33,468 bases of DNA from Prochlorococcus sp. AG-363-J23 (GTDB taxonomy: Bacteria > Cyanobacteriota > Cyanobacteriia > PCC-6307 > Cyanobiaceae): NCBI GenBank assembly GCA_003280245.1, contig QCFN01000014.1, positions 1 to 33,468 of the forward strand. Direction: 5' to 3'. The position numbers and the translations under genes were made by a program. This document shows, one piece after another, positions 16,002 through 32,436 of the stretch. A model generated the notes under the pieces. It saw nothing but the letters and a program-made list of their open reading frames with translations. It was not told the origin of the DNA and did not search any database. Every line of letters starts with the position of its first letter. The stretch's first letter is position 1.

Positions 16002-16072
<71 letters not shown>

Positions 16073-16131: not shown

Positions 16132-17565
16132 ATGGCGTTTCGCCTTCCCTTTCAAAAGAGATTGACAAATTCGATAGCAACCAAAGGGAACAGTCCTATA
16201 AGAATGTTCGTTTCCTATGGATTAGGTGATGCAGGGACTGGACTTGCTGCTTCCCAGTTAGGGTTTTATCTTTTTGCGTTTTTTACCTGTACCGCAGGCT
16301 TACCAGCATTTATCGCTGGATCTCTTCTAATGGTCATAAAGGTTTGGGATGGAATAAACGACCCATTGATCGGATGGCTCAGTGACCATACGCAATCTCG
16401 CTGGGGTCCTCGCCTACCTTGGATGATTGGGGCTTCCGCACCCCTTGGAATAACACTTGCAGCTATTTGGTGGGTTCCACCGGGGAGTATCACTTCAAAA
16501 ACCATTTATTTCATTCTTATCGCGGTTCTATTAATGACCGCTTACACAAGTGTCAATCTTCCCTATTCAGCTTTATCCGTCGAATTAACCAAAAGCACAT
16601 CAATTCGCACACGTCTAAACGCATCGCGTTTCACAGGCTCAATCCTGGCAAGTCTTACCGGTCTAATAGTTGCCTCATTACTTACAAATCAAGGTGAAAC
16701 TGGTTTTATTGCAATGGGTCGCATTGCCGGAACACTTGCGACATTAGCAACTCTTTTATGTTGCTGGGGTCTTGCACCGTTTGCCAAAAAAGCTCAACGA
16801 CCTAAGAGGCATAAAGAACCCTTTCGGTTACAGATTTATCGAATACTTCAAAACCCCCTTTTCCTGAAAGTTCTAAGTCTTTATCTAGTTTTATGGTGTG
16901 CGCTCCAACTAATGCAACCAGTAGCACTGATATATCTAGTGCAAGCAATGCACGTCCCGACAGAACAATCAACCTGGTTGCTCGTGGTTTTTCAAGTAAG
17001 TGCACTTGTCGGTTTACAAATTTGGACAATTTACTCAAATCATTACGGAAGAATAAAAGCCTTGTTCCTTGGTGGTGGTTTATGGATAGGAGGATGCACA
17101 ATTGCAATGTTCTTGAAACCACTTACGCATTCAGAATTATCATTAAATGGTCTTAATTCCTTGGCTGAGAATAACTCATATGAAATAGTTCCCCTATTAT
17201 TAACAATAATTCTTGTTGGCTTTGGTGCTTCAACTGCTTACTTAATTCCATGGTCTCTTCTTCCAGATGCAGTTGATTGGGATCCCGAAAAGCCATCAGG
17301 AATGTATACAGCTTGGATGGTACTAATACAGAAAATTGGGATCGGACTAAGTATTCAAATTCTAGGACTCCTTTTATCTTTTTCAGGATATAAATCAGCA
17401 GAAAATTGCTCAGGTGCAATGTCTTTTATCACCCAGCCTGAATCAGCTTTAGTAAGCATTAGGTTGTGCATGGGATTAATACCTGCTTTCCTAGTAATTG
17501 TTGGTTTGCTTTTAATGAGAAATTGGCCAGAAAAGCAACCCACTCTTAAGAAAGAAATTCCATGA
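16132..17565 (+). CDS. GPH-family (MelB-like) sugar:cation symporter
   Basis: Major facilitator superfamily protein of 477 residues with about 12 membrane segments. The GPH (glycoside-pentoside-hexuronide) signature is present in the second segment and loop: KVWDGINDPLIGWLSDHTQS, followed by RWGPRLPWM; its Asp residues are cation/sugar ligands in MelB. A second loop motif, LLPDAVDWDPEKPSGMYTAW, is also typical. Substrate unknown; the nearby glgX suggests but does not prove a carbohydrate. An internal ATG at 16204 (MFVSYGLGDAG) could be the real start. The stop overlaps the next gene by four bases (ATGA), so translation is coupled to the MlaE-like permease. Confidence 0.85.
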   Translation: MAFRLPFQKRLTNSIATKGNSPIRMFVSYGLGDAGTGLAASQLGFYLFAFFTCTAGLPAFIAGSLLMVIKVWDGINDPLIGWLSDHTQSRWGPRLPWMIGASAPLGITLAAIWWVPPGSITSKTIYFILIAVLLMTAYTSVNLPYSALSVELTKSTSIRTRLNASRFTGSILASLTGLIVASLLTNQGETGFIAMGRIAGTLATLATLLCCWGLAPFAKKAQRPKRHKEPFRLQIYRILQNPLFLKVLSLYLVLWCALQLMQPVALIYLVQAMHVPTEQSTWLLVVFQVSALVGLQIWTIYSNHYGRIKALFLGGGLWIGGCTIAMFLKPLTHSELSLNGLNSLAENNSYEIVPLLLTIILVGFGASTAYLIPWSLLPDAVDWDPEKPSGMYTAWMVLIQKIGIGLSIQILGLLLSFSGYKSAENCSGAMSFITQPESALVSIRLCMGLIPAFLVIVGLLLMRNWPEKQPTLKKEIP

Positions 17566-18308
17566 GAACTCCACGCTGGCTTAGAAGATTAGGAGCCAGT
17601 CTCCTTATTGGTGGTCAAGCAGTTTCTTCTGCTGCTAAAGGAAAAATTAACTTTTTAGATTTATCTGATCAGCTAATGGAGGCGGGGCCAGGAAGTTTCT
17701 TGATTGTTTTAATAACAGGAATAGCTGCTGGGACTGTATTTAATATTCAAGTGGCTGCAGAACTGAGCAGACAAGGTGCTGGTTCAACCGTTGGAGGAAT
17801 CCTTGCCATAGGTTTAGCTCGCGAAATTGCGCCATTATTAACAGCCACACTCCTTACAGGAAAAGTCGCAACCGCTTATGCAGCACAGCTGGGGACAATG
17901 AAAGTTACAGAGCAAATTGATGCCATAACAATGCTTAGCACTGACCCTGTTGAGTATCTAGTAGTCCCAAGATTAATAGCAATGGTAATAATGGCTCCTG
18001 TGCAATGCTTACTATTTTTAATAGTTGCTCTTTGGAGTGGACAAGTCAGTAGCACCAATCTTTATCAAATCCCTCCTGATGTCTTTTGGACTTCAGTTCG
18101 AACTTGGCTTAGCACTGACGATCTACCTTTCATGCTTATTAAAGCCCTCGTCTTTGGAGTTCTTATTGCCGTTCTAGCCTGCGGATGGGGGCTCACCACT
18201 AAAGGCGGCCCCAAAGAAGTCGGTACAAGTACAACAGGGGCAGTCGTAATGACACTTTTAACAGTCTCTGTTATGGATGTTCTCCTCACCCAAATTCTTT
18301 TCGGCTAA
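17562..18308 (+). CDS. MlaE/Ycf63-type ABC lipid transporter permease
   Basis: 248 residues; the permease of the MCE-type lipid ABC importers or exporters (MlaE in Gram-negatives, TGD1 in plastids, Ycf63 in algae), moving phospholipids or other glycerolipids between membranes. Five to six membrane segments. Family marks: GTVFNIQVAAELSRQGAG, the GLAREIAPLLTATLLTGKVA stretch that contacts the ATPase, and the MKVTEQIDAI segment after it. No ATPase or MCE substrate-binding gene is in the window, so partners must be elsewhere. It overlaps the upstream transporter (ATGA) and the next gene (TAATG), a plain operon. Confidence 0.9.
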   Translation: MRTPRWLRRLGASLLIGGQAVSSAAKGKINFLDLSDQLMEAGPGSFLIVLITGIAAGTVFNIQVAAELSRQGAGSTVGGILAIGLAREIAPLLTATLLTGKVATAYAAQLGTMKVTEQIDAITMLSTDPVEYLVVPRLIAMVIMAPVQCLLFLIVALWSGQVSSTNLYQIPPDVFWTSVRTWLSTDDLPFMLIKALVFGVLIAVLACGWGLTTKGGPKEVGTSTTGAVVMTLLTVSVMDVLLTQILFG

Positions 18309-18742
18309 TGGCAAAAAATTCAAAAGACATATCAAAAAAAGGAGAGGGAGTGATTCTCACCCCAGCACCACGTCTGCCTTTGACAATTGTTCTACTTGGC
18401 TTATTTCTCCTTCCATTGCCCTTAAGCCCATGGCCAACCGTAGTAATTAGTGGCTTTGGCTTGGCTCTTCTATTTCAAGCCTTCACCCTGCGCCTTGAAT
18501 TCACTAAAACCGACATGATTGTTTGGCAGCTAGATCGTGAATTGCGCCGTTTCCCTTTCAAAGACTGGCTAGCTTGGAGGATTTTTCTGCCATGGCTTCC
18601 AGGGATTCTTTATTTTAGAGAAATACAAAGTCCTCATCTTTTACCAATCCTTTTTGATCTTGAGCAATTAAGAGAGCAATTAAAATTAAAAGTCGGAAAC
18701 CTAGAAAAACCCAAAAAAGCTATTTTATCTAATAAAAACTAA
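18308..18742 (+). CDS. DUF3119-like cyanobacterial membrane protein
   Basis: 144 residues. A hydrophobic hairpin at about residues 22-58 (LPLTIVLLGLFLLPLPLSPW, then VVISGFGLALLFQAF) precedes a compact soluble domain with FTKTDMIVWQLDRELRRFPF and WLPGILYFREIQSPHLLP, which resembles a PH-like beta domain. The layout and neighbours fit the cyanobacterial DUF3119 family; the name is from memory of the family and is the weaker part of the call. The start ATG shares one base with the MlaE-like stop. Role unknown; position argues for lipid transport or membrane assembly. Confidence 0.7.
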   Translation: MAKNSKDISKKGEGVILTPAPRLPLTIVLLGLFLLPLPLSPWPTVVISGFGLALLFQAFTLRLEFTKTDMIVWQLDRELRRFPFKDWLAWRIFLPWLPGILYFREIQSPHLLPILFDLEQLREQLKLKVGNLEKPKKAILSNKN

Positions 18743-18756
18743 GTATTCGCAATTCC

Positions 18757-19749
18757 ATGCAAGAAGAAGACCTACTAAAATTAGATCTAGTTCCCGAAGG
18801 AGAAATTTCATCTATGGACGAATCTTTCCCCTCGGGAAATGCTATAGATCCAGAGAAAGAGAATCATTCAGAATCTGACAAAACAGCATTAGAGGAGCTA
18901 ATAACTTTGGCTTCGAAAGAGCTTTCACAACGTAAAGAACAACTAAATAATGAAATAATAGATTTAAACAATAGGAAGTTAAAAATAGAGAATGAATTCA
19001 AAGCAAATTTTTCAGGTCAATCTGATGAAATCGCAAGAAAGGTCAAAGGTTTTCAAGATTACTTAACAGGCGCCTTGCAAGACCTTGCGCAATCAGCTGA
19101 ACAACTTGAACTAGTTGTTCAGCCAATGATTGTAAAACCATCACCTCTTGACAAAGAAGAAACAATAATTTCTGAAAATACTCAAACCAGTCCTATCCCT
19201 ATTGCTGAGACCTTTAAACCAGATGAAGAACTTATCAAGGAATGTCTTGATCAATTTCTAAGCCAACCAGACTTTTACGCAGAACCTTGGAAGTTTCGCA
19301 GAAGTCTTAATCAAAAAGATATAAATATTTTATCGGATTGGTTCTTTAATCAAGGAGGAAGAGGCGCTCAACCAAGTATGGGTACTCGATCAAAAAATAT
19401 CATTTTATCAGCCGGATTAATTTCAATTCTCGGAGAACTTTATGGAGATCGCTTTCAGACCCTAGTTTTAGCAAGCCAACCGGAGAGGCTAGGAGAGTGG
19501 AGAAGAGGACTTCAGGATGCTCTAGGGCTAAATCGTGAAGACTTTGGCCCAAATAGTGGAATAGTGCTCTTCGAACGAAGTGACGCACTAGTTGAAAGGG
19601 CCGACAGGCTCGAATCTCACAATGAAGTCCCTATGATTCTTATAGATTCAGGTGAAGGTAATGTGGGGATACCTGTACTGCAATTCCCTCTGTGGCTTGC
19701 ATTTGCAGCAACTCCTGAGGAAATTTATGAGGATGAACAATTACTGTGA
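18757..19749 (+). CDS. DUF3086-like cyanobacterial protein, unknown role
   Basis: 330 residues without membrane segment. Acidic N-terminus (1-45), a coiled coil at about 42-120 (SKELSQRKEQLNNEIIDLNN), a proline-rich link, and a conserved-looking C-terminal domain from about 170 to 330 that contains FYAEPWKFRRSL, DWFFNQGGRGAQPSMGTR and a closing strand region LQFPLWLAFAATPEE. This fits the cyanobacterial DUF3086 family. It could act as a scaffold that joins to membrane partners through its coiled coil; that is inference. The last four bases overlap the plsY start (GTGA). Confidence 0.75.
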   Translation: MQEEDLLKLDLVPEGEISSMDESFPSGNAIDPEKENHSESDKTALEELITLASKELSQRKEQLNNEIIDLNNRKLKIENEFKANFSGQSDEIARKVKGFQDYLTGALQDLAQSAEQLELVVQPMIVKPSPLDKEETIISENTQTSPIPIAETFKPDEELIKECLDQFLSQPDFYAEPWKFRRSLNQKDINILSDWFFNQGGRGAQPSMGTRSKNIILSAGLISILGELYGDRFQTLVLASQPERLGEWRRGLQDALGLNREDFGPNSGIVLFERSDALVERADRLESHNEVPMILIDSGEGNVGIPVLQFPLWLAFAATPEEIYEDEQLL

Positions 19750-20372
19750 GTTTTGAAGATTTCCTATCAGATTTTTTAGTTCTCTGTATTGGGTACTTAA
19801 TTGGATCTCTACCAAGCGGTTACTTGGCAGGCAAATGGATAGCAGGAATTGATTTGCGAAAATTTGGATCCGGTTCTACTGGCGCCACTAATGTTCTACG
19901 TCAAGTAGGGAAAGGACCAGCATTAATTGTTTTTATTTTAGATGTATCTAAAGGAGCTTTTGCTATCTATCTAGCTAAATCATTAGGCCTAAATGAATAC
20001 TTGGAAATAGCATCAGGTATTTCAGCTTTAGCAGGACACATATGGCCAATTTGGCTTGGATGGAAAGGAGGGAAAGCTGTCGCAACAGGGCTTGGTGTAC
20101 TTTTAGGTATCTCCTGGATAGTAGGACTTGCTAGCTTTGGGATCTTTTTAGCTGTCTTAAGCTTAAGCAAGATTGTTTCTCTCTCAAGTATCGTTTCAGC
20201 GATTAGTCTTCCGATTCTAATGTTGCTTCAATTCCAAGGAGATAATTTTAGTCCTGCTTATTTAATTATTTCCTTATTAGCAGCAGGAATGGTTCTTTGG
20301 CGACATCGAAGCAACTGGAAAAGGCTAAAGGAAGGGAAAGAACCTCGAATAGGTCAAATTCAAAATCGCTAA
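19746..20372 (+). CDS. plsY: Acyl-phosphate:glycerol-3-phosphate acyltransferase
   Basis: Integral membrane enzyme that makes lysophosphatidic acid from acyl-phosphate and glycerol-3-phosphate, the first step of glycerolipid synthesis. 208 residues, about five to seven membrane segments. Conserved active-site loops: [11 protein letters not shown] at 20-30, [16 protein letters not shown] at 41-56 and [14 protein letters not shown] at about 114-127. The start is GTG, overlapping the DUF3086-like stop. Its stop overlaps the convergent pyrF stop by four bases. Confidence 0.95.
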
Positions 20373-21112
20373 ATTTTTTTTAACTCTGTACAACAAAGAT
20401 TAAAAGCCTCTAACGGGTCATTAGCGAGAGTTATAGATCTCCCAATAACAATTCGCGAAGAGCCTTCTATTAAGGCCTGCAATGGGCTCATAACCCTTGC
20501 CTGATCAGACAAATCATCCCCAGGCAATCTAATCCCAGGAGTAATCAATTCAAACGGCAATGGATGCTTAATTCGCAGTGTTTTAACTTCCAAAGGCGAG
20601 CAGACACAACCACTTAAACCAGATACTTTGGCAAGAAAAGCCAAGTCATTTACTCGGTCCAAAATAGGCTGACTAATTTTCAATTCTTTTTCCATAAGTC
20701 TTGAATCCCAGCTAGTGAGAACTGTTACTCCCAACAACTTTGGAGCAGGCAATCCAACATCTGAAGATCCTTTTACAGCAGCCGATTGAGCCTCTAACAA
20801 TGCTTTTGATCCTGCGCATGCATGAACAGAAATCATCTCTACACCAAGACTTCCAGCGCGATAACAAACGCCTCTCATAGTTGCAGGGATATCATGAAAC
20901 TTAAGGTCCAAGAAAATATTCAATCCATATTCTTTAAGGCGAAAAATAATTTCAGGTCCACCTTCAACAAAAAGTTCTAATCCCACTTTCACCCATTTTA
21001 ATCCTTTTAAACCCGAAGCAAATGAAATAGCTTCTTCGGACGTCATACCATCTAAAGCAAGGATTATTCTCTCTTCGGGACTTAAATAAAAACTCCTTAG
21101 ATTATTCTTCAT
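20369..21112 (-). CDS. pyrF: Orotidine 5'-phosphate decarboxylase
   Basis: Makes UMP from OMP, last step of pyrimidine synthesis. TIM barrel of 247 residues, normal for the bacterial group I type. The catalytic Asp-Lys-Asp set is seen in [12 protein letters not shown] (Asp69, Lys71, Asp74), with ALDG at 19-22 and the phosphate-binding end [20 protein letters not shown]. It lies seven bases downstream of tyrS on the same strand, so the two are likely one transcript. The 3' end overlaps plsY by four bases. Confidence 0.95.
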
Positions 21113-26158: not shown

Positions 26159-26815
26159 TTAATCTTCGGCCAAGCCTTTCCAAGGCTTATTTGTTCTCGA
26201 CTGCTCGCCCCAAACTTGATCAAGTCGAGCATCTCTCCCGCAGCTAAACCTATAAAAATTATATTTAAGGCTATTATATTCAGCAAAATCTTGATGGTAA
26301 TCCTCAGCAACCCAAAAATCAGAAGCATCTTCTACGACAACTTTGATGCGATCAATTGGCTCATCAATTTCTTTTGAAGCAAATTCGATACTTTTAATTG
26401 CTTCATTTTTCTGATCCAAATCATTTGTAAAAATAAATGGTTTATAAGAGTCTCCTCTGTCACAAAACTGTCCATTTCCATCAAGCGGATCAATATTCCT
26501 CCAATAACTAAGGAGCAATTCCTGGTAACTAACTCTTAAAGGATCAAAAGTTACCTTGATTGCTTCTTTGTGGCCTGTATTTTCAGAACTAACTTGACGA
26601 TATGAAGGGTTAGGAATCTTTCCTCCTGTATATCCACTTTCAACTGACAAAACTCCTTTCAACTCTTGAAAGTCATGTTCTAGGCACCAAAAACAGCCCC
26701 CTGCAAAAATAGCATGTTGTTCCAGGGCAACTCCTTCATAAGGCTTTAGTAAAACAATTGCAATTAAACATATCAAAGAAAGAAAAATGGAATTTAATAG
26801 CTTGGTAAAATTCAT
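26159..26815 (-). CDS. msrA: Peptide methionine sulfoxide reductase A, exported-looking
   Basis: Reduces S-methionine sulfoxide in proteins. The active-site motif [11 protein letters not shown] puts the catalytic Cys at residue 41, with another Cys at 44; further cysteines near 118 and 192 could resolve the disulfide. Later family motifs: [29 protein letters not shown] and AEDYHQDF. The 30 residues in front, with hydrophobic [15 protein letters not shown], look like a signal peptide or anchor, so it probably works in the periplasm or thylakoid lumen. 218 residues. The start overlaps the lpxB stop by three bases of ATGA, so it is coupled to lipid A genes. Confidence 0.93.
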
Positions 26816-27993
26816 GTCTTGATTGAATCTAAAATTACTTTAGCCGCCCTTTGAGTAACCCCTTTAGTCCCAAGTATTTTCCGGAGGCGCTTATAACCTA
26901 AAAGCATGGACAAGCGAGTTTCTGACTTTTCTAGCAATGGTATTGCTAAATCAAGAATTGCTGAAGGGGTGAATTCTTCTTGAATCAACTCAGGTACTAA
27001 TCTTTCATTTAAAAGTAAATTGACAGGAGAAATATGATCAACATTAAATTTTAGAATATTACGTGCAATAAATGCAGTAATTCGACTAACTCGATAACCA
27101 ACAATCTGGGGAACTTCATGCAGAGCTAGTTCCATATTTACAGTCCCTGATTTCCCCAAAGCAAGATTAGTAACTGCAAGTACAGTTGATTTTATTGATG
27201 CCCATTCTTTTGCAGAAATTACTCTTCCACGCACCTCTGCTTCTTTCAAAGACCTGCGTAAAGGCTCTTCAAAACTTTTCAACCCAGCAGGTATAATCAC
27301 CTCTATAGATTGATCGCGCTTTTGAAGCAAAGAAGCTGCCTGAATCAAAGTAGGCATTACGTACCTAAGTTCTTGAGTTCGAGAAGCAGGGAGAAGTAAT
27401 AAGAGCTTCTGCCAAGATTCTAGTCCTAGTTTTTGACGAGCTTGTTTGAGATCTGGGAGTGTAGTTAATGTATCGACCAATGGGTGTCCTACCCAACTAA
27501 CCTTTGCGCCCTTTTGAGAATAAAATTCAGCCTCTGCGGGGAAGATTGCTAAAATCCGATCAGTAAAAGTAATAAGTTCTGTTGTGCCTCCATCTCCTAA
27601 GCGCCAAGCCCATTCTTGAGGAGCTATGTAGTAATGAATCGGAATCAATGGAAGCATCTGTTTGACTTTTTTGCCTAAACGAATATTTGGCCCCATGTAA
27701 TCAATAAGGACTACCGCATCTGGTTTTCTTTGTCTAAGGATTTGATCAACTTTTGCTTGAAGTCTCAAAGTTGGAAGTACATAAGGGAGAGCTTCCCAAA
27801 GTCCTATCGCCCCCATTGGAGCAGTATCAGCTATTAACTCTGCTCCTGCATGAGCCATTCGAGATCCTCCTAAAGCTATAACTTCAAGAGAAACTCCTCT
27901 AGCAGAGGCTTCTTCATTTAAAGCTTGAATCAAAAGACTACCTTGCAAGTCACCAGAGACTTCTCCAGTACTAATCAAAATTCGAACACTCAA
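26812..27993 (-). CDS. lpxB: Lipid-A-disaccharide synthase
   Basis: Glycosyltransferase family 19; joins UDP-2,3-diacylglucosamine and lipid X to the lipid A disaccharide at the inner membrane. 393 residues. Shown by the N-terminal [31 protein letters not shown], the PQEWAWR stretch, [10 protein letters not shown] and the C-terminal sugar-nucleotide region with [15 protein letters not shown]. The start codon overlaps the lpxA stop by four bases, and the stop overlaps msrA by four. Confidence 0.96.
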
Positions 27994-28853
27994 TTTAAAT
28001 CAACCCTTTTAGGCATAGGACCTCTTCGAGAGGTCTTAATGGACTCATTTAAAAACATGCAAAGATGCTTAGCTGCAGGCAAAAGCTCCTCGCTAAATGC
28101 AACCTCAAGAGCTTCAGCAAGTACATAATCTGATCGAAATAACAACGTCCATATCTTTTGCAATTGTCTAAATTCCCCTCCTTCTTTCTTATCCAAACCA
28201 CTTCTCCTTAGACCAACCAAGTTAAGTCCCCTTAAGCGTCCAGGGTGTCCCTCTGCCAAACAATAAGGTGGAACATCTCTATCAACTCTTGTCATTCCTC
28301 CAACCATGGCAAGGCGACCAATATGTACAAATTGATGCACACCTAGACAACCCCCAATTACCGCCCGATCTTCTATAAAAACGTGACCTGCAACTTGAAT
28401 TCCATTAGACATAACAATTCGATTGCCGAGTATGCAGTTATGACCAAGATGGCAATAAGCCATCAAAAGATTTTCATCACCAATTAGCGTTTGATCGCCT
28501 TCTTCAGTTGCTCGATTAATTGTTACGCATTCCCTAATTGTATTTCGATCCCCTATTACAACCTCCGTTGATGCACCTCTGTACTTAAGGTCTTGAGGCT
28601 CCAAACCCAAACAAGCTCCGGGGAAAACCCGATTACTTTCTCCCAGAGTTAAGCGTCCATCCAAAACAACATTTGGGCCAATCCATGTGTTCGAGCCTAT
28701 TTTCACCTCTGGACCAACAACAGCTCCTGGGCCAACTCTTACACCCGATCCCAATTCCGCTCTGGGATCAACCACTGCCAAAGAGTGAACCTGAACGGAA
28801 GAACTCTCTGATATTTCAACAAAAGGATGACTTAAGTCACTCATAGTCATCAA
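27990..28853 (-). CDS. lpxA: UDP-N-acetylglucosamine acyltransferase
   Basis: First step of lipid A synthesis: moves a 3-hydroxyacyl chain from ACP to UDP-GlcNAc. Left-handed beta-helix with hexapeptide repeats ([20 protein letters not shown]), catalytic His in [12 protein letters not shown] (His135/His138 region), and a C-terminal helical part. 287 residues against about 262 in E. coli; the extra length is at the N-terminus, where MMT, M4 and later positions offer alternative starts. It overlaps fabZ and lpxB by four bases each. Confidence 0.96.
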
Positions 28854-29305
28854 TCAACCAAAGAAAATAACAGTTCTCCTGAACAAACAATTCCGTCTTC
28901 CACCTTTGCTTCTGCTCGAACCTTGCCAAACCTTTTTCGTTTTAGGCTTACTAACTCGCAAGAGATGACAAGCTGATCTCCAGGAACCACTGGTCGCTTA
29001 AATCGCACACCATCTATACCGGCAAATACAAATAGACCCTTGGGAAGGTCTGGCATCTGAGAAACAATCAATCCTCCGACCTGAGCCATAGCCTCAACAA
29101 TTAATACACCAGGCATCAAAGGTCGCTCAGGAAAATGTCCCTGAAATTGAGGTTCATTGAGCGTTACATTCTTGATAGCGACTGCACTTTTACCTGGATC
29201 ATGAGAAACAACACGGTCAACCAAAGCAAAAGGATATCTATGTGGCAGAAGCCCCATAATTTGCTCTGCGTTAAGAATTGGAGAAGTAGGAATTGAATCG
29301 GTCAA
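28850..29305 (-). CDS. fabZ: 3-hydroxyacyl-ACP dehydratase
   Basis: Dehydrates 3-hydroxyacyl-ACP in fatty acid elongation and so competes with LpxA for the same hydroxyacyl pool. Hot-dog fold, 151 residues. Catalytic His57 in [13 protein letters not shown] and Glu71 in EAMAQVGG, with [13 protein letters not shown] near residue 20. Sits between lpxC and lpxA, which fits the balance of the two pathways. Six bases follow lpxC. Confidence 0.96.
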
Positions 29306-29311
29306 TTGAAA

Positions 29312-30178
29312 TCAGCAGTAAGAAGAAGAGGCTTTGAAAAGTGCACAAGCAAAATCATTATGAAGCCCATGAGAACCTTTATAGACAAGAACTTGGGCTC
29401 GAGGAAATCCAACAAGTGCCAAATCACCTATTAAGTCCAACATTTTATGGCGCACAGGCTCGTCTTTAAATCGCAAAGGAGGGTTAATCCATTTATCTCC
29501 GTCACAAACAAGCGCATTTTCCAAGGCTCCTCCCTTAATAAGACCAGCTTTTCTTAATTGATCAACCTGATCGCGAAAACCAAAAGTTCGAGCAGGAGCT
29601 ATCTCATTTACAAACTTCTCAGGAGTGAGATCAACCGCCAAAAACTGCTTCCCAATTGCGTCCTGAGGGAAATCAATCAAACCCACAAGTCCAAAATTGT
29701 CGGCAGGAGTTGCTGCGATCACACTCTTTCCACGATTCAAGACTAAAGGGGCATCTAAAGACAATCTTGCGGCAGCCTCTGTGGCAGCAGGACGAATACC
29801 AACTTCAGCAATAGCTTCTACCCAATTAATTGCCGAACCATCTAAAAGGGGGACTTCTGTACCTTCAACCTGTATTTCAATATGGGTAAGACCACACCCT
29901 GCAATTGCAGCCAACATATGTTCAACTGTTGCCAAACGACGAGAACCTAATTCAAGGGTTGTGCAGAGTGGGCTATCTCTAACTTGATGTGGATTCAGGG
30001 TTATTGGAGGATCATTGCAATCAAGCCAAGACAGTTGAATCCCTTTTTTTTCAGACGGAAGTAATCGAATGCGATTAATTTCCCCGCTGTGCAATCCAAC
30101 TCCTCTCAACGAAAAGCTATCAGCAAGCGTCCATGCGCCTTCGTAATTATCAGGCCAGTTGGCCACTAGAATTTCCAA
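29312..30178 (-). CDS. lpxC: UDP-3-O-acyl-GlcNAc deacetylase
   Basis: Zinc enzyme for the first committed step of lipid A synthesis. Zinc ligands are visible: His87 in TVEHMLAAIAG, and His/Asp in RHKMLDLIGDLALVG near residue 240; the general-base His is in SHGLHNDFACALF near the C-terminus. GVGLHSGE is at 26-33. 288 residues. The TTG at 30178 follows GGAG closely; a GTG at 30166 shares one base with the bamA stop (TAGTG) and would cut four residues. Either way it is translationally tied to bamA. Confidence 0.95.
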   Translation of the reverse strand: MEILVANWPDNYEGAWTLADSFSLRGVGLHSGEINRIRLLPSEKKGIQLSWLDCNDPPITLNPHQVRDSPLCTTLELGSRRLATVEHMLAAIAGCGLTHIEIQVEGTEVPLLDGSAINWVEAIAEVGIRPAATEAAARLSLDAPLVLNRGKSVIAATPADNFGLVGLIDFPQDAIGKQFLAVDLTPEKFVNEIAPARTFGFRDQVDQLRKAGLIKGGALENALVCDGDKWINPPLRFKDEPVRHKMLDLIGDLALVGFPRAQVLVYKGSHGLHNDFACALFKASSSYC

Positions 30179-32436
30179 CCCACTCCAAGATTAAAACGCC
30201 ACTCACCATCTAATCCTTGACTAGCGGCCTCTACACGCAGGGGTCCTACTGGGGTATTAACTATCAATCCCGTGCCAACAGAAAATCCTGAGCCTGGTTT
30301 ATCTAAAAGTTTTCCTGGCTTACCAGGAACCTTAGATTGAGAACCTAAATCTGTTCCTCCATCAACAAATACCTGTCCAGAAACAATATTCCAAATTGGA
30401 AATCGATATTCAACAGAAGCCTCAGCAAAACTCCTCCCAACAGATAAACCACATGAATTCCATCCACGTACAGAACTTGATCCGCCCATGCAAAAGGCCT
30501 CGTATGGAGGCAATTCACCAACGATCGTTCCTGCTTTCGCTTGAACTCCAATTGTCTGAGGACAATTATATTTTTCCCCAGGTTTTGGTCTACAACCTTT
30601 AGAAATTTTTATCCAGTTTACTGGAATGAAATATGTGTAGCTTGTTCTCGCTCTGTTAAAAGTTGGAGAATTTTCTCCAACTGAGAAAAACTGTTCAGTT
30701 CCAAAGCTTGCGAAGCTTCCAGAAGTTGGCGTTCGAGCATTATTTAAATTATTGTAAGATACCCCTGTTCTAATTCCCAAAAGATTATTCTCTTCGGCGC
30801 AACCATAGGCTATACAAATTATCTCTTCGTTAGGAACAGATCCGTCTTTAATTTTATTTGTTGCCACTCCATAAGGCTGACTCAAACCTGCAAAATTTAT
30901 AGGCCTTACACTTTGTAGGTTTAAACCTGCAAGTATTCTCCAAGGCGATTTTCTATAAGGATTTCCTCTATTAAGTGGTCTTGAAAAAACAAATCTTGCT
31001 CCCGTTCGCTGTAAAGCAACTGCATCACCTTCGTAGTCAAACCAACTAGTCGATGAATCACTATCTTTTGCAGCAGCAACTGAATCAAATTTCCCTTTAA
31101 CATGTGCGTCTGAGTTAATATCATAAGCTCGTACAGAAGTTCCTTCGTGATAATCAGATATTCCTCTAATAGTTCCTGAATCTTGACTTTGAAAAGCCTG
31201 AGGCACCTCTCTACTTAAAAATAAAGATGTACGGAATGATGTGCGATAACGATCTCCTTTAATCCAGGGGTCATAGAAGCTCAAATCAGCCAATCCTCCA
31301 AACTGGCCATAAGTTAAATTCAGAGAAGCGTTCCAGGCACGACCGAATAGATTGCTATCTTGGATTCCTACTTGACCAAAAACTCCCTGACTTTGACTAT
31401 ATCCAATTCCTCCTGACAATGATCCTGTTGACTGCTCAATAATACCAAGAACAATAATAACATTACCAGGCTCTCCTGGCACAGGCTTTAATGTAACTTT
31501 GACATCACTAAAAAGAGAGGTGGCATATAATCTTTTTATATCTTCTTCAAGCTGATTTCTATTAAATGATTGACCAGGTCTTATAGAAATTTCTCTTTTA
31601 ATTACCCAAGGCTTGGTTTTTCCCTTTAGTAACTTTGTCTTATCCTCATCAGAATCACTTTCTTTATTAAGAAACCGCACTTCTACTCCTGAAACCATTC
31701 CCTCAATAACCCTTAAACTGACTACCCCGTCTGGAGTAATTCGACTCGGTCCACTAATTCTTGCCAGAGAATATCCTTCATTGAGATACCAATTCTTTAA
31801 TTCTTTAATTCGAACTTGAAGATTATTCAAATCCAAAGTTTTCCCATAATCATCTGCAAAGATTTGATCAAGAGTCTTCTGAGAAACTTTTGCCCCTACA
31901 GGCTCCAATTTGACCTGATATAGCGGAGGGTTTGGCTGAACCTTAACAACAAGCTGAACGCCTAGAGGGGCATCATTAGGTTCTATACGAACTCCTGCGA
32001 ATAGTCCTGTTGAGTAAATAGCATTTAAATCTAGTTTTACCTGGTCCCTTGTCACGCGACTTCCAGGTCTAACGCTCATCGCGTCATATGCAGCAAGTTC
32101 TAAACGCTCCTTTTCTGGATGACCTTCAGTACCTTCGATAATGACCTCTGTTATTAATACTCGAGTCTCATCAGATTCATCCCTCTCTGAACCACCAAAT
32201 TGATTGGTTTCAGAAGCTTGGCCTTCAGTACTGTTTTCAAGCTGTGAATTACCCTCTGAGATTTTCTCTTGACCAATTAGAGATTCAGATGGATAAATTT
32301 CAATAGCCTCAAGCCCTTTATCTTGTACAAACGGGTTATAACCGGCAGGAACTGCCACAAGAGGCACTGCTACAGCCAAGCCATAGGCTCCTTTCCAAAA
32401 AGACTCCGAGGATCCATAAGAAGGTGAACTGACCAT
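30166..32436 (-). CDS. bamA: BamA/Omp85 outer-membrane assembly protein
   Basis: Inserts beta-barrels into the outer membrane. 756 residues: a signal-like hydrophobic stretch at about 14-35, an acidic low-complexity linker to about 90, POTRA domains to about 335 (three are usual in cyanobacteria; TRVLITEVIIEG starts the first), then a 16-strand barrel from GSLSGGIGYSQSQGVFGQVG to the end. The lid-loop motif is SSVRGWNSCG, against the usual VRGF or VRGY. The last strand ends in Phe, the outer-membrane targeting signal. First of the envelope operon, 44 bases after purC. Confidence 0.95.
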   Translation of the reverse strand: MVSSPSYGSSESFWKGAYGLAVAVPLVAVPAGYNPFVQDKGLEAIEIYPSESLIGQEKISEGNSQLENSTEGQASETNQFGGSERDESDETRVLITEVIIEGTEGHPEKERLELAAYDAMSVRPGSRVTRDQVKLDLNAIYSTGLFAGVRIEPNDAPLGVQLVVKVQPNPPLYQVKLEPVGAKVSQKTLDQIFADDYGKTLDLNNLQVRIKELKNWYLNEGYSLARISGPSRITPDGVVSLRVIEGMVSGVEVRFLNKESDSDEDKTKLLKGKTKPWVIKREISIRPGQSFNRNQLEEDIKRLYATSLFSDVKVTLKPVPGEPGNVIIVLGIIEQSTGSLSGGIGYSQSQGVFGQVGIQDSNLFGRAWNASLNLTYGQFGGLADLSFYDPWIKGDRYRTSFRTSLFLSREVPQAFQSQDSGTIRGISDYHEGTSVRAYDINSDAHVKGKFDSVAAAKDSDSSTSWFDYEGDAVALQRTGARFVFSRPLNRGNPYRKSPWRILAGLNLQSVRPINFAGLSQPYGVATNKIKDGSVPNEEIICIAYGCAEENNLLGIRTGVSYNNLNNARTPTSGSFASFGTEQFFSVGENSPTFNRARTSYTYFIPVNWIKISKGCRPKPGEKYNCPQTIGVQAKAGTIVGELPPYEAFCMGGSSSVRGWNSCGLSVGRSFAEASVEYRFPIWNIVSGQVFVDGGTDLGSQSKVPGKPGKLLDKPGSGFSVGTGLIVNTPVGPLRVEAASQGLDGEWRFNLGVGWKF

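What the first reader, a model, noticed from the sequence alone, without database searches (positions are those of the whole stretch)
17562..20372. Lipid operon with two uncharacterised cyanobacterial proteins
MlaE-like permease, DUF3119-like, DUF3086-like and plsY are joined by overlaps or a 14-base gap (TAATG, GTGA). The two end genes both act on glycerolipids, so the two in the middle are good candidates for lipid transport or acyltransfer partners. The permease has no ATPase or MCE partner here.
Basis: partly seen in the sequence, partly recalled or inferred. Interest (0 to 1): 0.5.

Follow-up and report, generated by a model that had tools for sequence, protein, structure and literature searches.

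The report
Cyanobacterial lipid operon, two mystery genes
A gene cluster kept together across much of the cyanobacteria joins a lipid transporter and a lipid-making enzyme to two uncharacterised proteins, one of which is lost when photosynthesis is lost, so they are good candidates for helpers in building photosynthetic membranes.

Summary
In detail: MlaE permease, DUF3119, DUF3086 and plsY form one tight run in a Prochlorococcus-type genome. The permease's MCE and ATPase partners exist on another contig. The order is old: the two DUF genes adjoin in 76 of 82 genomes, DUF3086 and plsY in 59 of 84, all four in 35 of 95 (9 of 32 families); the permease link is looser (44 of 93). DUF3119 models as two membrane helices with a PH-like domain; its first Foldseek match is the NOX2-EROS entry (weak, E 0.029). 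DUF3086 models as a coiled coil plus a RecA-like domain without the Walker A lysine (0 of 162). DUF3119 follows photosynthesis: over cut-off in 90 of 92 Cyanobacteriia and in none of 102 other-class genomes, and a pseudogene in both non-photosynthetic spheroid bodies, which keep DUF3086, plsY, MlaE and MCE. So the operon probably serves lipid supply, with DUF3119 as a photosynthesis-linked membrane adaptor or assembly factor, not an obligate transporter subunit. Function is inferred, not shown.

The parts
16132..17565 (+). MFS_2 transporter, first gene of the run; closest solved relatives are MFSD2A lysophosphatidylcholine symporters; ATGA overlap with MlaE
   Evidence: PF13347, 236 bits; profile 130 bits to 7mjs MFSD2A, 63 bits to MelB 4m64; found before MlaE in 13 of 13 fetched genomes of the window's GTDB family and in no other family
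17562..18308 (+). MlaE/TGD1-type lipid ABC transporter permease
   Evidence: TIGR00056 over cut-off; PDB MlaE 7ch8 E 2.8e-27
18308..18742 (+). DUF3119: predicted two-helix membrane hairpin plus PH-like domain
   Evidence: pLDDT 88.4; bacterial PH 3dcx Z 9.7
18757..19749 (+). DUF3086: predicted long coiled-coil helix plus degenerate RecA-like alpha/beta domain, no membrane segment
19746..20372 (+). plsY, acyl-phosphate:glycerol-3-phosphate acyltransferase
   Evidence: TIGR00023 189 bits, cut-off 137
20369..21112 (-). pyrF, convergent neighbour that ends the run (not part of it)
16002..16072 (-). tRNA-Gly(tcc) that separates the run from the isoamylase-type gene upstream (not part of it)

Best explanation
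It is an ancient cyanobacterial glycerolipid operon that serves growth of photosynthetic membranes. Shown: gene order, families, predicted folds, distribution. Inferred: function. PlsY makes lysophosphatidic acid, the entry step to glycerolipids. MlaE is the membrane subunit of a TGD1/2/3-like lipid ABC transporter whose MCE and ATPase are encoded elsewhere. In picocyanobacteria an MFSD2A-like symporter probably adds lysolipid uptake or flipping. DUF3119 is an integral membrane PH protein, similar in build to EROS; most likely it binds lipid or a membrane enzyme at the cytoplasmic face and helps pass lipid, or assemble a lipid-dependent complex, in photosynthetic cells. DUF3086 is a cytoplasmic coiled-coil protein with a degenerate RecA-like domain, most likely an oligomeric scaffold or regulator acting with DUF3119 and PlsY, not a working ATPase.
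For: DUF3119-DUF3086 adjacency in 76 of 82 genomes, DUF3086-plsY in 59 of 84, all four in 35 of 95. Five of five fetched Gloeobacter-like (f44) genomes, which lack DUF3086, have DUF3119 directly before plsY, so that link predates DUF3086. Apart from overlapping-frame shadows no other gene family recurs beside them in more than 11 of 32 families. Stand-alone permeases nest inside operon permeases in the tree, so the permease left the operon secondarily. PH fold of DUF3119. MFSD2A-like first gene. One permease in each of 23 genomes of the window's family and one MCE in each of the four tested, so the operon permease must serve the distant MCE/ATPase. DUF3119 over cut-off in 90 of 92 Cyanobacteriia and 0 of 102 other-class genomes, broken in place in both non-photosynthetic spheroid bodies.
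Against: No experiment. The permease is next to DUF3119 in only 44 of 93 genomes. Loss of DUF3119 without loss of MlaE, MCE or plsY in the spheroid bodies says it is not needed for basal lipid synthesis or transport. PH folds often bind proteins, not lipids. Operon membership can reflect shared expression only. Structures are predictions; the best Foldseek E-value for DUF3119 is 0.029.
Confidence: 0.4

Rival explanations
1. DUF3119 is a protein-assembly chaperone for photosynthetic complexes, of the EROS/Ycf4 kind (two membrane helices with a PH-like domain), placed beside plsY because lipid supply and photosynthetic membrane growth are co-expressed; it does not handle lipid.
For: DUF3119 tracks oxygenic photosynthesis: 90 of 92 Cyanobacteriia over cut-off, 0 of 102 other-class genomes, 15 of 16 deep-branching genomes (f44, f51, f25, f49), pseudogene in both non-photosynthetic spheroid bodies while lipid genes stay. 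Its first Foldseek match, over 146 columns, is a 164-residue chain of the NOX2-p22phox-EROS entry 8kei (that this chain is EROS is my inference from size and fold). EROS is described as a PH domain with two membrane helices inserted between its strands (passage of PMC9767466) and as an ortholog of the photosystem I assembly factor Ycf4 (abstract and passages of PMC5379978). DUF3119's model likewise has short strand segments before the hairpin.
Against: The 8kei match is weak (E 0.029, TM-score 0.34, rmsd 7.0). No sequence signal to Ycf4 (hhalign probability 0.1, below several null families; only two Ycf4 sequences). The genomes already have a Ycf4. Persistent adjacency to plsY, not to photosystem genes. 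The same paper says PIGH, a subunit of a lipid-modifying enzyme, is predicted to have this build too. The spheroid bodies carry 225-286 pseudogenes, and two sister lineages may be one loss.
Confidence: 0.32
2. DUF3119 and DUF3086 are regular subunits of the MlaE-MCE-ATPase transporter.
For: MlaE precedes DUF3119 in 44 of 93 genomes and 14 of 32 families; permease and DUF3119 genes overlap by one base in the window.
Against: Half the genomes have the permease elsewhere. DUF3086 is absent from all 16 deep-branching genomes tested, yet all 16 gave a permease match and the five checked have MCE. DUF3119 is dead in spheroid bodies that keep MlaE and MCE.
Confidence: 0.1
3. Old but functionally neutral synteny: housekeeping genes that share a promoter without a shared pathway.
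For: In the window's own family the neighbourhood runs on into pyrF, tyrS and DUF1825 with no obvious shared pathway.
Against: Those neighbours are confined to one or two families, while the DUF3119-DUF3086-plsY core recurs in 19 families with other surroundings.
Confidence: 0.15

Closest known systems
TGD1/2/3 (chloroplast) and Slr1045 (Synechocystis) lipid ABC transporters
   Same: MlaE-type permease with MCE and ABC ATPase encoded in the same genome. TGD1-3 as a chloroplast lipid importer: passages of PMC6828968. The 2012 slr1045 lipid-transport paper was seen only as a reference entry in PMC10781874.
   Different: Permease gene sits in an operon with DUF3119, DUF3086 and plsY, away from its MCE and ATPase.
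MlaFEDB of proteobacteria
   Same: Same permease family (PDB 7ch8, 6xbd).
   Different: No mlaF/mlaD/mlaB beside it; plsY and two cyanobacterial families instead.
EROS/Ycf4-type integral membrane PH proteins
   Same: Two membrane helices with a PH-like domain; tied to photosynthesis as Ycf4 is.
   Different: No sequence relation to Ycf4 found; weak structural match only; sits in a lipid operon.
MFSD2A lysophosphatidylcholine symporter
   Same: First gene of the picocyanobacterial run is nearest to it among solved structures.
   Different: Bacterial, 477 aa, substrate untested; MFS_2 also holds sugar carriers.
LplT-Aas lysolipid salvage pair of E. coli (recalled, no call)
   Same: MFS carrier plus acyltransferase for glycerolipids.
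   Different: PlsY is an unrelated enzyme; permease and DUFs added.

Membership tests
MlaE permease (PF02405 / TIGR00056) | Profile match over curated cut-off | tested here: met
   229.2 vs 22.5 bits; 225.9 vs 212.2 bits
MlaE/TGD lipid ABC transporter | MCE and ABC ATPase partners in the genome | tested here: met
   MCE (PF02470) and adjacent ABC_tran gene on contig C35; MCE in 26 of 26 relatives searched
MlaE/TGD lipid ABC transporter | Assembled permease-ATPase-MCE complex that moves lipid | not testable with these tools
   No multimer prediction or assay
PlsY | TIGR00023 equivalog over cut-off | tested here: met
   188.8 vs 137.2 bits
PH superfold (DUF3119) | PH-type beta sandwich with C-terminal helix | tested here: met
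   AF2 pLDDT 88.4; VIA list is mostly PH, PTB, FERM-F3 and GLUE-type domains, best 3dcx Z 9.7, 2.8 A, 85 residues; Foldseek E only 0.029 at best
PH superfold (DUF3119) | Lipid or phospho-ligand binding | not testable with these tools
   -
EROS-type build (DUF3119) | Membrane helix hairpin inserted inside a PH domain | tested here: inconclusive
   First Foldseek match is the NOX2-p22phox-EROS entry 8kei chain D, E 0.029, TM-score 0.34; short strand segments at 15-19 precede helices 22-60
Ycf4 (DUF3119 considered) | PF02392 match or profile similarity | tested here: not met
   Only PF11317 hits; hhalign probability 0.1
RecA-like P-loop fold (DUF3086 C-domain) | RecA-like alpha/beta core | tested here: met
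   XPB 2fz4 Z 12.4, 2.7 A, 131 residues; hhalign score 31.4 to XPB-like SF2 and 29.0 to Rho against a maximum of 19.9 in 29 null families
Active P-loop NTPase / helicase (DUF3086) | Walker A GK[ST] | tested here: not met
   0 of 162 sequences; R211 and N214 invariant instead, D297 (Walker-B-like) invariant in 162 of 162
Active helicase (DUF3086) | Second RecA domain | tested here: not met
   Model holds one such domain and ends there
GPH sugar symporter (first gene) | TIGR00792 over cut-off | tested here: not met
   168.2 vs 231.35 bits
MFSD2A-like lysolipid symporter (first gene) | Closer to MFSD2A than to MelB over full length | tested here: met
   130 vs 63 bits, two stretches covering profile positions 8-462
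MFSD2A-like lysolipid symporter (first gene) | Sodium-coupled lysolipid transport | not testable with these tools
   -

The most novel reading that the evidence does not exclude
A cyanobacteria-specific machine that couples glycerolipid supply to the building of photosynthetic membranes: PlsY makes the precursor, MlaE (and in picocyanobacteria an MFSD2A-like symporter) moves lipid, DUF3119 is a new EROS/Ycf4-like membrane PH protein needed only in photosynthetic cells, and DUF3086 is a helicase-type RecA domain that lost its ATP site and became a coiled-coil scaffold.
Probability: 0.17. Interest if true: 0.75.

Novelty: new variant of a known kind. Interest (0 to 1): 0.53.

Why it matters
How lipids reach the thylakoid, and how that is tied to assembly of the photosynthetic apparatus, is an open question (recalled). 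Two near-universal cyanobacterial families with almost no literature are tied by gene order to plsY and a TGD-type permease, and one of them follows photosynthesis itself. S. elongatus gives hits for both families in the control sets, so the idea can be tested by plain knock-outs in a laboratory strain.

Tried and rejected
Ycf4 homology of DUF3119 by sequence: Ycf4 was found next to psbD in two Prochlorococcus-type genomes, but hhalign gave no signal and Ycf4 finds no solved relative. DUF3086 as a true helicase or Rho relative: profile comparisons place it near both SF2 and Rho, single SF2 subfamilies give weak scores, a sequence search against the PDB gives only Rho at E 0.5, and the Walker A lysine is gone; so only the fold is claimed. 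Plasmid-borne copies: none found by tblastn. Solved sequence relatives of DUF3119: none. Full-length DUF3086 hits in Pfam and the PDB look like coiled-coil noise. Whole-operon loss in G046 and G058: these two class members lack DUF3119, DUF3086 and the canonical plsY, and G046 also any MlaE; beside the syntenic SppA-type gene G046 has unrelated genes. Real loss and assembly fault could not be told apart. No paper in the library holds cyanobacteria + MlaE + lipid transport + thylakoid. Promoter and terminator scans gave no more than shuffled sequence.

Rows dropped: of the 90 class genomes with DUF3119 over cut-off, 80 were used for gene order (10 near relatives left out; in all ten the coordinates put DUF3119 and DUF3086 side by side); 15 deep-branching or odd genomes were added, making 95. 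ORFs under 50 aa were not considered. Genome counts are weighted towards Nostocaceae-type (f7) and picocyanobacterial (f1) genomes, hence the family counts beside them.
Full report
Check of the observation. The four ORFs, their coordinates and junctions are as described and the family calls are over curated cut-offs. The run is longer than stated: an MFS_2 transporter at 16132-17565 overlaps the permease by ATGA. A minus-strand tRNA-Gly lies upstream and pyrF is convergent downstream. The window lies in a 1.31 Mb, 69% complete genome in 55 contigs whose nearest named relatives are Prochlorococcus single-cell genomes.

Gene order elsewhere. I fetched regions around DUF3119/DUF3086 from 94 further genomes and scored them with profiles grown from the window proteins. 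Counting the window's genome there are 95 genomes from 32 GTDB families: DUF3119-DUF3086 adjacent in 76 of the 82 that show both; DUF3086-plsY in 59 of 84; MlaE-DUF3119 in 44 of 93; all four in a row in 35 of 95 (9 families); the DUF3119-DUF3086-plsY core in 53 of 95 (19 families). Of the 80 named picocyanobacterial loci, 71 show all four (my reading); 7 of the other 9 are cut by contig ends, L219 lacks DUF3119 at that spot and L245 lacks a plsY ORF. Apart from shadows in overlapping frames, no other gene family recurs nearby in more than 11 of 32 families. A FastTree of permeases (support values not inspected) puts eight stand-alone copies inside the operon copies, so the permease moved out of the operon in some lineages.

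Distribution. In 194 genomes drawn across the phylum, DUF3119 is over cut-off in 90, all in the photosynthetic class. The class holds 92 of the 194 if the unlisted misses are all outside it, as the sort order suggests; the other 102 have none over cut-off (one weak, stop-containing match below it). DUF3086 is in 89. In 16 deep-branching genomes (f44, f51, f25, f49; sizes fit Gloeobacter, Anthocerotibacter and Thermostichus-type genomes, recalled) DUF3119 is in 15 and DUF3086 in none. Five of five fetched f44 genomes have DUF3119 directly before plsY. So DUF3119-plsY is the older link and DUF3086 joined later.

A natural knock-out. Genomes G141 and G177 have exactly the lengths of the Epithemia turgida and Rhopalodia gibberula spheroid bodies (2,794,318 and 3,020,309 bp; table passage in PMC5638926), which cannot photosynthesise. 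Both keep DUF3086 and plsY, MlaE and MCE, but DUF3119 is a stop-ridden remnant in its usual place. The photosynthetic relative whose main contig has the length of Cyanothece PCC 8801 (G137) keeps it intact. The two symbionts are sisters and carry hundreds of pseudogenes, so this is one or two events, not proof.

The transporter is complete but split. The window's genome has one MlaD/MCE gene with an ABC ATPase beside it on another contig. Each of 23 genomes of the family has one MlaE, and the four checked have one MCE. The operon permease is therefore the partner of that pair (inference).

DUF3119. AlphaFold2 with 63 picocyanobacterial sequences gives pLDDT 88.4: helices 22-33 and 41-60, six strands and a C-terminal helix, with short strand segments before the helices. 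The helices are hydrophobic. Foldseek's list (best E 0.029) starts with a 164-residue chain of the NOX2-p22phox-EROS structure 8kei, aligned over 146 columns but with TM-score only 0.34, and goes on mostly with PH-type domains. VIA's list is mostly PH, PTB, FERM-F3 and GLUE domains, first a bacterial PH domain (3dcx, Z 9.7). That the 8kei chain is EROS is my inference from size and fold. EROS is described as a PH domain with two membrane helices inserted, a build also predicted for PIGH, a subunit of a lipid-modifying enzyme (passage of PMC9767466), and as an ortholog of the photosystem I assembly factor Ycf4 (passages of PMC5379978). Together with the loss in spheroid bodies this makes an assembly-factor role a serious rival. 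A direct profile comparison with Ycf4 gave nothing, and no solved sequence relative exists.

DUF3086. AlphaFold2 with 62 sequences gives pLDDT 83.2: one helix 38-116, a low-confidence linker, then a confident alpha/beta domain. Its best matches are RecA-like domains: XPB, UvsW, SNF2 and Rho. Profile comparison with 29 unrelated neighbour families as null (maximum 19.9) gives 31.4 to XPB-like SF2, 29.4 to all SF2, 29.0 to Rho, and only 16.6 to a second SF2 group. None of 162 sequences has GK[ST] in the P-loop, while R211, N214 and D297 never vary. So it is a degenerate RecA-like domain; an active helicase or ATPase is not supported.

MFS_2 gene. Its profile scores 130 bits against MFSD2A and 63 against melibiose carrier, and it fails the GPH sugar-symporter cut-off. 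It is part of the operon only in the window's GTDB family (13 of 13 fetched).

Literature seen. DUF3119: two papers, one apparently a false match to the gene name DUF31196 (abstract in the listing), the other naming it once, paired with MinC_C (passage of PMC3597751). DUF3086: one paper, named once in UCYN-A (passage of PMC11637426). I read passages only. Nothing on their function was found by these searches; most subscription papers are not in the library.

Verdict. A real, widely conserved operon. Lipid involvement of the two DUFs is likely but inferred. DUF3119 is probably tied to photosynthetic membranes and is not an obligate transporter subunit. Whether it handles lipid or assembles proteins is the open point.

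Noticed in passing
window 26815-32436 (-): Lipid A cluster lpxC, fabZ, lpxA, lpxB next to an Omp85 gene in the same window.
   Followed up: no
window 16132-17565: MFSD2A-like MFS_2 transporter heads the operon in picocyanobacteria only.
   Followed up: partly
L188 and L189, upstream of DUF3086: DUF3119 pseudogene in place in both non-photosynthetic spheroid-body genomes.
   Followed up: yes
L332 (G046) and genome G058: Two Nostocaceae-type genomes lack DUF3119, DUF3086 and canonical plsY; G046 also lacks any MlaE but keeps MCE.
   Followed up: partly
genomes such as G002, G011, G046, G058: A second, roughly 950-aa protein with a weak plsY-type domain is in most of the 15 genomes checked; it is the only plsY-type match in G046 and G058.
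   Followed up: no
L219 and L174 (G135): Picocyanobacteria with a 163-base gap where DUF3119 should be; in G135 DUF3119 lies on another contig.
   Followed up: no
L143 6118-7346: In a Thermostichaceae-type genome (f25) DUF3119 overlaps a Cu-oxidase_4 gene instead of plsY.
   Followed up: no
L245: plsY ORF not found between DUF3086 and pyrF (618-base gap); possibly a frameshift.
   Followed up: no
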